Assembly: GCA_015233515.1 (NCBI GenBank)
Contig: JADFXS010000023.1
Location: 1 to 21,978 of the forward strand
Source: Deltaproteobacteria bacterium
GTDB lineage: Bacteria > Desulfobacterota > Desulfarculia > Adiutricales > JAGVGV01
Length of the DNA stretch: 21,978 bases
Reading direction: 5' to 3'
Each line of letters starts with the position of its first letter. Position 1 is the first letter of the stretch. The notes beneath the pieces were generated by a model. That model was not told where the DNA came from, searched no databases, and saw only the letters and a list, made by a program, of their open reading frames with translations. Of the stretch, positions 20,277 through 20,534 are shown piece after piece. The translations under genes were made by a program, and so were the position numbers.

Positions 20277-20304
20277 TTGACATGGACCGGGGTAACCCTA
20301 TATG
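20277..20304 (+). promoter_or_regulatory. Promoter of the trpL-trpB2 transcript
   Basis: A perfect -35 TTGACA (20277-20282), a 16-nt spacer and TATATG (20299-20304), with an AT-rich TATTTTTTTC just before. Transcription should start near 20311, about 55 nt before the leader-peptide ATG. The 240 nt between this and the divergent response regulator gene contain one small hairpin (ATCGCA/TGCGAT, 20167-20185) and no credible gene. Confidence 0.65.
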
Positions 20305-20308
20305 TGAT

Positions 20309-20329
20309 CTGACATGAATAATTTGTCAG
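20309..20329 (+). promoter_or_regulatory. Inverted repeat at the trp transcript start
   Basis: CTGACA (20309-20314), nine bases and TGTCAG (20324-20329) form a perfect 6-bp inverted repeat at the predicted transcription start. It could be a 5' hairpin that protects the leader RNA or the operator of a repressor. No regulator gene is adjacent. Confidence 0.35.
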
Positions 20330-20364
20330 CCTACAACTCCCCGACTGCCGGACGAAAGCTCAAA

Positions 20365-20433
20365 ATGATGGAGAACTATATTGTTCGGTTCTGGTGGTGG
20401 CGCAATTTATCGGCGGTGGATGTAGGCGTGTAA
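20365..20433 (+). CDS. trpL: trp leader peptide with three tandem Trp codons
   Basis: A 22-codon ORF, beginning MMENYIVRF and followed by WWW, encoded by TGG TGG TGG at 20392-20400, then RNLSAVDVGV and TAA at 20431-20433. Trp is rare, and three in a row just before an intrinsic terminator is the hallmark of a tryptophan attenuation leader. Ribosome stalling at these codons when Trp-tRNA is scarce would change folding of the downstream RNA. Either ATG 20365 or 20368 could start it. The upstream sequence (GGACGAAAGC) is a poor ribosome site, which is the main weakness. Confidence 0.8.
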   Translation: MMENYIVRFWWWRNLSAVDVGV

Positions 20434-20474
20434 GCGTATAACTACAGCCTGGCAAAAAGCAAGGCCCACCGTCG
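20411..20474 (+). promoter_or_regulatory. Candidate antiterminator pairing of the trp attenuator
   Basis: CGGCGGTGG (20411-20419), just after the Trp codons, can pair with CCACCGTCG (20466-20474): nine pairs, one a G-U. The second segment is the 5' arm plus loop edge of the terminator, so the two structures exclude each other. Other competing folds are GGATGTAG with CTACAGCC (20418-20425 with 20442-20449, one mismatch) and GCCTGGC with GCAAGGC (one mismatch). Which set is used cannot be decided by eye. Confidence 0.6.
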
Positions 20475-20502
20475 TAAGAAACGGTGGGCCTTTTGTGTTT
20501 TT
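20461..20502 (+). terminator. Intrinsic terminator (attenuator) before trpB2
   Basis: AAGGCCCACCGT (20461-20472) and ACGGTGGGCCTT (20481-20492) form a perfect 12-bp stem with an 8-nt loop, followed by a U-rich tail TTTTGTGTTTTT (20491-20502). It lies 28 nt after the leader-peptide stop codon and 32 nt before the trpB2 start, so it would stop transcription before trpB2 unless the antiterminator forms. Confidence 0.88.
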
Positions 20503-20534
20503 CCAGGCATCTAATAATGACGGAGGTTTCGTCC

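What the first reader, a model, noticed from the sequence alone, without database searches (positions are those of the whole stretch)
20277..20534. Complete tryptophan attenuator in front of trpB2
The sequence directly shows a sigma-70-type promoter, a short ORF with three consecutive TGG codons, a 9-bp candidate antiterminator, a perfect 12-bp terminator with U-tract, and the trpB2 ribosome site, in that order. Ribosome-mediated trp attenuation is well known for trpE-led operons. Here the controlled gene is the stand-alone TrpB2 form, often assumed to be an indole-salvage enzyme. This implies that TrpB2 is a tryptophan-responsive biosynthetic enzyme in this lineage.
Basis: partly seen in the sequence, partly recalled or inferred. 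Interest (0 to 1): 0.75.

Follow-up and report, generated by a model that had tools for sequence, protein, structure and literature searches.

The report
Tryptophan-sensing switch before stand-alone trpB2
A short RNA switch in front of a stand-alone tryptophan-making enzyme gene appears to let the gene be read only when the cell runs short of tryptophan, which suggests that the little-understood enzyme TrpB2 serves tryptophan supply, most likely by recapturing indole.

Summary
At 20277-20534 lie a consensus -35 box (weak -10), a short ORF with three TGG codons, a 9-bp antiterminator (one G-U), a perfect 12-bp terminator with U-tract, and the trpB2 ribosome site. The upstream gene is divergent, so the terminator can only act on a transcript begun in this leader.

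Comparison shows it is not chance. A leader with at least 3 tandem TGG precedes trpB2 in 19 of 81 loci (shuffles: mean 0.075) and in 72 of 90 loci examined in one Syntrophales-like order. Of 85 such leaders, 84 have a terminator before trpB2; in 76 aligned leaders alternative helices covary.

Most of these relatives use a six-segment, his-leader-like relay. The window and its nearest relative L002 use a four-segment form: unrelated letters, same logic.

'Trp-attenuated' does not imply 'biosynthetic, not salvage'. Of 96 genomes with the strong leader at trpB2, 80 also carry TrpB1, and trpE had its own Trp leader in 28 of 30 loci. Similar Trp leaders precede iorA-like genes and an aromatic-type outer-membrane protein. 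Best reading: a Trp-starvation-induced indole-recapture enzyme, perhaps within an aromatic-amino-acid attenuation regulon. No expression data.

The parts
20277..20304 (+). promoter-like sequence: -35 TTGACA (20277-20282) and weak -10 TATATG (20299-20304)
   Evidence: read; not listed by the promoter scan; a TTGA[CT]-type promoter-like match (8 of 12 or better) lies upstream of 40 of 85 such leaders against 5.95 in shuffles
20365..20433 (+). leader peptide ORF MMENYIVRFWWWRNLSAVDVGV-stop (an in-frame ATG also at 20314)
   Evidence: W-rich leaders conserved in relatives
20392..20400 (+). three tandem TGG (Trp) regulatory codons
20411..20419 (+). region 2 (CGGCGGTGG), 5' strand of the antiterminator
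   Evidence: 9 pairs with 20466-20474, part of the predicted fold when the ribosome is placed on the Trp codons
20466..20474 (+). region 3 (CCACCGTCG), 3' strand of the antiterminator, overlapping the terminator 5' arm
20461..20502 (+). intrinsic terminator: 12-bp stem 20461-20472 / 20481-20492, loop of 8, T-rich tail
20522..20526 (+). ribosome-binding site GGAGG of trpB2
20535..21896 (+). trpB2 (453 aa), the controlled gene
19623..20036 (-). divergent response-regulator gene; shows that the terminator does not serve an upstream + strand gene

Best explanation
A ribosome-mediated Trp transcription attenuator controls trpB2. Transcription starts near 20310 and a ribosome follows RNA polymerase on the leader ORF. 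With ample Trp-tRNA it runs to the stop codon (20431-20433), covers the 3' part of region 2, and the terminator at 20461-20492 forms. With little Trp-tRNA it stalls at the TGG codons, region 2 pairs with the terminator's 5' arm before the 3' arm is made, and polymerase reads into trpB2. The window has a short four-segment form; most relatives with the leader have a six-segment relay (1:2, 3:4, 5:6 against 2:3, 4:5). The likely purpose is to raise recapture of indole plus serine into Trp when Trp is short, beside a normal trp operon. Shown here: the parts, their conservation, covariation in relatives, predicted folds. Inferred: that it switches, its signal, the enzyme's role.
For: WWW leaders before trpB2 in 19 of 81 loci against 0.075 in shuffles and in 72 of 90 loci examined of one order (19 of 30; 53 of 60). 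A terminator between Trp codons and trpB2 in 84 of 85 leaders after removal of 12 known duplicates. In 76 aligned leaders: all or all but one pair of 1:2 in 73, 3:4 in 75, 5:6 in 76, 2:3 in 73, 4:5 in 55; cells with double changes 78 against 27.5 and 43 against 13.4, no shuffle of 500 reaching either. Stop codon close to region 2 in 70 of 76. Of the 100 strongest genome hits of the leader model, 96 lie within 600 nt upstream of trpB2 on the same strand. Window: antiterminator in the fold of the growing transcript with the ribosome at the Trp codons (-30.1 and -24.7 kcal/mol), absent with the ribosome at the stop codon; L002, 78% identical in TrpB2, does the same with different letters (-25.6 against -1.3). 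The trait is clustered on the TrpB2 tree, with the window in a supported set of 29 rows, 21 of them with the leader.
Against: No expression data. In the full-length RNA the terminator is the more stable state even with the ribosome at the Trp codons (-41.1), so the switch has to be kinetic, as in known attenuators. Weak -10 box and poor leader ribosome site. The ribosome at the stop codon would cover region 2 only in part (stop 20 nt after region 2 begins). No 1:2 helix in the window. Near relatives L003 and L114 lack the leader. L052's fold gave no convincing antiterminator. Two covariation measures (number of pairs with a double change) are not beyond shuffles (56 and 76 of 500 reach them), and related sequences can exceed shuffles without structure.
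Confidence: 0.85

Rival explanations
1. The attenuator is real, but TrpB2 is the main biosynthetic tryptophan synthase beta subunit in the window's organism: it serves the IGP pathway with TrpA, and TrpB1 is missing.
For: 16 of 96 genomes with the strong leader at trpB2 showed no TrpB1 match, though these are MAGs of unreported completeness. No TrpB1 over cut-off in 7 of 21 genomes, nor TrpA in G020.
Against: 80 of 96 have TrpB1. Of the window's order, G001 and G021 have TrpB1 over cut-off and G001, G021 and G059 have TrpA. trpE in G021 and G059 has its own WWWW leader.
Confidence: 0.15
2. A plain intrinsic terminator and a chance Trp-rich ORF; trpB2 is read constitutively from another promoter between 20502 and 20535 or by leak-through.
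For: The window's region-2 duplex alone is matched by 18 of 1000 shuffles. The -10 box is weak.
Against: Conservation and covariation in relatives, same logic in L002 with different letters, and no upstream + strand gene that would need a terminator there.
Confidence: 0.05
3. The leader answers to Trp by another route: a T-box, a Trp-binding protein or a ligand-binding RNA.
For: Other bacteria control trp genes in those ways (recalled).
Against: No T-box or other Rfam family reaches its gathering score in the window. Tandem Trp codons whose stop codon sits at region 2 are explained only by translation. Leaders of similar architecture before aroF-like and ABC-transporter genes carry Tyr/Phe-rich peptides instead (the Phe peptide of L327 was read by eye from the printed sequence). 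Binding by a protein was not tested.
Confidence: 0.04

Closest known systems
Ribosome-mediated trp operon attenuator (trpL; Rfam RF00513 Trp_leader)
   Same: Leader peptide with tandem Trp codons, antiterminator and terminator that exclude each other, just upstream of a Trp-synthesis gene; RF00513 aligns over its full length at the right place.
   Different: Controls a stand-alone trpB2, not a trpE-led operon. RF00513 score is below its gathering score (19.2 against 41). The window has no 1:2 helix; most relatives have six segments, not four.
Six-segment his operon leader (A-F relay; recalled, not tested here)
   Same: Relatives show the same relay: 1:2, 3:4, 5:6 terminate; 2:3 and 4:5 antiterminate.
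   Different: Trp instead of His codons; different gene; the window itself has the short form.
Candidate attenuators before trpB1EDGC and trpB2A in Corynebacterium diphtheriae (PMC1262725, passages seen)
   Same: A Trp attenuator predicted upstream of a second trpB gene.
   Different: There trpB2 leads a trpB2A operon in an actinobacterium; whether that protein is of the TrpB2 family was not checked. Here the gene is apart from trpA.
Conserved sequences before aroG-2 and iorAB-paaK in Geobacter (PMC2700814 Table 2, passages seen)
   Same: Conserved leader sequences on similar kinds of genes; the iorAB-paaK one is labelled 'tryptophan'. The paper calls TrpB2 indole-scavenging.
   Different: Described as possible promoters and riboswitches, with no leader peptide named in the passages seen; Geobacter trpB2 is in the predicted trp operon.

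Membership tests
Ribosome-mediated Trp transcription attenuators | Short leader ORF with tandem Trp codons upstream of the gene | tested here: met
   conserved in relatives
Ribosome-mediated Trp transcription attenuators | Intrinsic terminator between leader ORF and gene | tested here: met
   84 of 85 leaders
Ribosome-mediated Trp transcription attenuators | Antiterminator exclusive with the terminator, formed when the ribosome stalls at the Trp codons | tested here: met
   predicted folds only; covariation of 2:3 in relatives
Ribosome-mediated Trp transcription attenuators | 1:2 protector helix that allows termination without translation (as in E. coli; recalled) | tested here: inconclusive
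   no 1:2 helix in the window's folds; in the full-length fold region 2 instead pairs with a stretch just before the terminator, which might play that part. Present in 73 of 76 six-segment relatives
Ribosome-mediated Trp transcription attenuators | Read-through rises when charged tRNA-Trp falls | not testable with these tools
   needs a reporter or RNA data
Rfam RF00513 Trp_leader | Score at or above the gathering score (41 bits) | tested here: not met
   19.2 bits over positions 1-100 of 100, E 0.15; so not filed as a member of this Rfam family
Six-segment leader family of the relatives (model R1, built here) | Six segments with hairpins 1:2, 3:4 and 5:6 | tested here: not met
   the window lacks 1:2 and the extra hairpin; it still scores 16.6 bits, E 0.018
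TrpB2 (TIGR01415 / NF009057) | Score over the curated cut-off | tested here: met
   664.5 against 518.85 and 736.6 against 366
TrpB2 (TIGR01415 / NF009057) | Makes Trp from indole and serine without TrpA (recalled for characterised members) | not testable with these tools
   needs an enzyme assay
T-box leader | Match to a T-box model at gathering score | tested here: not met
   no Rfam family at gathering score in the window

The most novel reading that the evidence does not exclude
In a branch of Desulfobacterota, one family of six-segment leader RNAs has been copied to several aromatic-amino-acid genes with only the regulatory codons exchanged: Trp codons before trpB2, trpE, iorA and an aromatic-type outer-membrane protein, Tyr/Phe/Trp codons before aroF-like genes, Phe codons before an ABC transporter. 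Together they form a codon-addressed starvation regulon in which stand-alone TrpB2 recaptures indole when Trp runs short. The window carries a reduced four-segment member of it.
Probability: 0.4. Interest if true: 0.65.

Novelty: new member of a known kind. Interest (0 to 1): 0.5.

Why it matters
The role of stand-alone TrpB2 is unsettled. One paper takes it as indole-scavenging (PMC2700814, passages); another argues that attenuation becomes superfluous for detached trp genes of marine organisms (PMC2395257, passages). A conserved Trp attenuator on a detached trpB2, beside a trp operon that usually has its own, ties the enzyme to Trp supply and makes its role testable with one reporter experiment and one enzyme assay. 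Similar leaders also mark iorA-like genes and an outer-membrane protein as probable Trp-supply genes.

Tried and rejected
Distant DNA search of the plasmid collection with the leader: no match. Rfam at gathering score: nothing in the window; seven other loci at E up to 0.5 gave two unrelated weak hits. Chance origin of the Trp run: rejected by shuffles and reverse strand. A terminator serving an upstream + strand gene: rejected, the upstream gene is divergent. L038's WWW ORF is counted in the 19 of 81 but has no terminator and is probably chance.

Under those terms I saw no paper on a trpB2 attenuator in Desulfobacterota, but most subscription papers are not held, so an earlier description cannot be excluded. 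Papers were seen as passages only or as search listings; in PMC2965389 none of the six words sought occurs.

Rows dropped: 12 loci known to duplicate others were removed before counting 85 leaders (L111-L113, L141, L149-L151, L156, L168, L169, L171, L173); near-identical leaders of different genomes remain. Alignment A1 uses 76 of the 84 leaders with terminators; 8 of other type were left out (window, L002, L052, L053, L057, L060, L072, L198). On the tree L073 (two TGG plus terminator) was labelled by hand as having the leader and L079 (W-Q-W) as lacking it. Leaders with interrupted Trp runs (for example L212, L079) were not counted as WWW. The neighbour table did not place trpB2 in L001, L002, L032 and L054. 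Of 125 trpB2 genomes in the order of G004, 90 upstream regions were examined (two of them short, L163 and L164), 35 not. Twenty weaker model hits were picked by me from a longer list for a closer look.

Full report
What is there. Two are weaker than described: the -10 box is 4 of 6 (TATATG, 16-nt spacer) and the promoter scan does not list it, and the leader ORF has a poor ribosome site. The ORF may start at 20365 or at an in-frame ATG at 20314, about 3 nt after the inferred start of transcription. The upstream gene (19623-20036) is divergent, so the terminator at 20461-20492 cannot serve an upstream + strand gene; it must act on a transcript begun between 20036 and 20461, and trpB2 is the gene it would shut off.

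More than chance. One genome scan with the window's TrpB2 kept the best 80 of 340 relatives, mostly MAGs titled Deltaproteobacteria, Desulfobacteraceae, Syntrophaceae and the like. A leader ORF with at least three tandem TGG lies within 500 nt upstream (less near contig ends) in 19 of 81 regions, window included; 40 dinucleotide shuffles give a mean of 0.075 and the reverse strand 0. The order of L022's genome G004 (it includes loci titled Smithellaceae and Syntrophaceae, hence 'Syntrophales-like') has trpB2 in 125 of 149 genomes searched. Upstream regions were examined for 90 of these: 19 of 30 and 53 of 60 have the WWW leader. Some misses have interrupted runs (W-R-W in L212), others truly lack it (for example L142 and L153, where a gene ends shortly upstream). 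In the order of L057's genome G014, 3 of the 30 best loci had it. In the order of L002's genome G001 the four loci closest to the window are L002 (leader present), L003 and L114 (absent) and L001 (only about 250 nt of upstream sequence; none seen). On a quick TrpB2 tree of 91 rows the trait needs 6 changes (shuffled mean 20.6), and the window lies in a starred set of 29 rows of which 21 have it; the outgroup was not monophyletic.

How it works in the relatives. Of 85 leaders, 84 have an intrinsic terminator between the Trp codons and trpB2; the exception is L038. The 76 that align as one type show six segments. Region 1 (GGCAGAC, beginning in the last Trp codon) pairs with region 2 (GTCTGCC). 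Region 3 (about GAGCATGGGCAG or GAGCCGTGGGCAG) pairs with region 4 (about TTCCCATGACTC). Region 5 pairs with region 6 in a terminator with U-tract. The alternatives are 2:3 (CTGCCCAT with ATGGGCAG) and 4:5 (CTTCCCATG with CATGGGAAG). All or all but one pair are kept in 73, 75 and 76 of 76 sequences for 1:2, 3:4 and 5:6, in 73 for 2:3 and in 55 for 4:5. Cells with a change on both sides number 78 against 27.5 in shuffles for the first state and 43 against 13.4 for the second, no shuffle of 500 reaching either. Sliding the partners drops pairing from 97.7 and 91.8 percent to 39-53 percent. Less favourable: the number of pairs with a double change is reached by 56 and 76 of 500 shuffles, one slide (-3) of the second state still has 38 double-change cells, and relatedness alone can exceed shuffles. 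The key pair of 2:3 is U-A in 33 and C-G in 31 leaders. The leader's stop codon lies within -15 to +12 nt of the start of region 2 in 70 of 76, so a ribosome that finishes the peptide should cover region 2; the frequent ending V-C-P is region 2 read as codons. The 4:5 helix is the least supported, but without it region 5 would always be free to terminate. L053 and L060 carry two successive terminators.

Specificity. The model R1 built from these 76 has 100 hits of 54.5 bits or more among 149 genomes. Of these 96 lie within 600 nt upstream of trpB2 on the same strand. Of the other four, in G127 and G106 the trpB2 match is partial and on another contig, in G151 no trpB2 match was found, and in G118 a complete trpB2 lies on another contig, which I cannot explain.

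How it works in the window. The window is not of the six-segment type, though R1 finds it as its only match up to E 1 (16.6 bits, E 0.018). Region 2 (20411-20419) pairs with the terminator's 5' arm. With the ribosome assumed at the first or third Trp codon, the fold of the RNA made up to the terminator's 5' arm is this antiterminator with two inner helices (-30.1 and -24.7 kcal/mol; -29.1 and -28.3 with slightly different ends). With the ribosome at the stop codon it is gone (-7.6). Once the 3' arm is made, the terminator is the more stable state in every case tried, stalled ribosome included (-41.1), so antitermination must be kinetic. Without any ribosome the growing transcript still folds the antiterminator (-52.8), while the full leader folds the terminator, with region 2 in a hairpin of its own; whether an untranslated leader reads through is therefore open. 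L002 behaves alike (-25.6 stalled, -1.3 at the stop codon) with different stem letters, a compensatory rewrite. L052 gave no convincing antiterminator.

What the enzyme is for. The protein is TrpB2 by curated models; its closest solved relatives (6hul, 4qys, 6hte) score far above the TrpB1 chains. In the order of G004, TrpB1 is over cut-off in 112 of 149 genomes, TrpA in 110, trpE in 100, or 114 at E 1e-60, and 80 of the 96 genomes with the strong leader at trpB2 also hold TrpB1. A WWW or longer leader (about LNNWWWWNLxGRIFRR) precedes trpE in 28 of the 30 best-scoring loci; of the two misses L274 has only 153 nt upstream. In the order of G001, G021 and G059 have WWWW leaders before trpE, and G001 has a Phe/Tyr-rich leader before a DAHP-synthase-like gene (read by eye). 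No genome of the 149 has tryptophanase over cut-off; 11 have a weaker relative. TrpB2 is thus usually an extra beta-type enzyme under separate Trp control. Because salvage also yields Trp, the attenuator cannot decide between synthesis and salvage; the company it keeps leans to salvage. Among 20 weaker R1 hits picked for a look: Trp leaders before IorA-like genes (L332 scores 628.7 against a cut-off of 650.9; L325, L333, L334 by resemblance), Trp leaders before a Phenol_MetA_deg outer-membrane-type protein (L335, L340; L339 by resemblance), Tyr/Phe/Trp leaders before DAHP synthase (L323; L322, L324, L326 by resemblance), Phe-rich leaders before an ABC substrate-binding protein (L328; the rest of this group by resemblance, in L329 only an ABC ATPase was read), and two trpE-type leaders (L321, L331). 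Around trpB2 itself, the same outer-membrane family lies downstream in four loci with the leader, an IorA cluster in 17 loci (one, L052, with the leader; representative over cut-off), PGDH-like genes in 14 (representative below cut-off) and serC in 6.

Novelty. The mechanism is classical. New, as far as the open library shows, is the target: a stand-alone trpB2, conserved over an order. The nearest precedents seen are a candidate attenuator before a trpB2A operon in C. diphtheriae and conserved sequences before aroG-2 and iorAB-paaK in Geobacter. That I found no closer report rests only. I rate it a new member of a known kind, of moderate interest; the codon-swapped six-segment family would raise it if shown to work.

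Noticed in passing
L325, L332, L333, L334: Trp-codon leaders (LWWWRSSHKG, FWWWQSINK) with a terminator before iorA-like genes.
   Followed up: partly
L335, L339, L340: WWW or WWWW leaders before Phenol_MetA_deg (PF13557) outer-membrane-type proteins; the same family lies downstream of trpB2 in L053, L057, L060, L072.
   Followed up: partly
L322, L323, L324, L326: Aromatic leaders such as FYYWNYYY and FYFWYYYF before DAHP synthase (aroF-like) genes.
   Followed up: partly
L327, L328, L329, L330, L336, L337, L338: Phe-rich leaders (for example FFAFFSFFGEVCLL, read by eye) before a Liv-type ABC transporter.
   Followed up: partly
44 of the loci L001-L080, just downstream of trpB2: A small conserved protein of about 90 aa with Cys motifs (CPRLGG..YC..LPC..CW), no Pfam match for the one tested; a linked partner of trpB2 of unknown function.
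   Followed up: partly
window 21893-21978 (+): An ORF overlapping the trpB2 stop (ATGA) runs off the window end (MTFFRPNRVSVIHYLRALRHVTPGCNAR..); it does not look like the small Cys protein.
   Followed up: no
G118:C106:6917-7059 (+): A strong leader-model hit (86.1 bits) that is not in front of that genome's complete trpB2.
   Followed up: no
L053, L060 upstream of trpB2: Two successive terminators: hairpin 3:4 has its own U-tract, followed by 5:6; possibly intermediate between the four- and six-segment forms.
   Followed up: partly
window 16312-18315 (+): A class I adenylate cyclase-like protein (316 bits, below the curated cut-off of 802).
   Followed up: no
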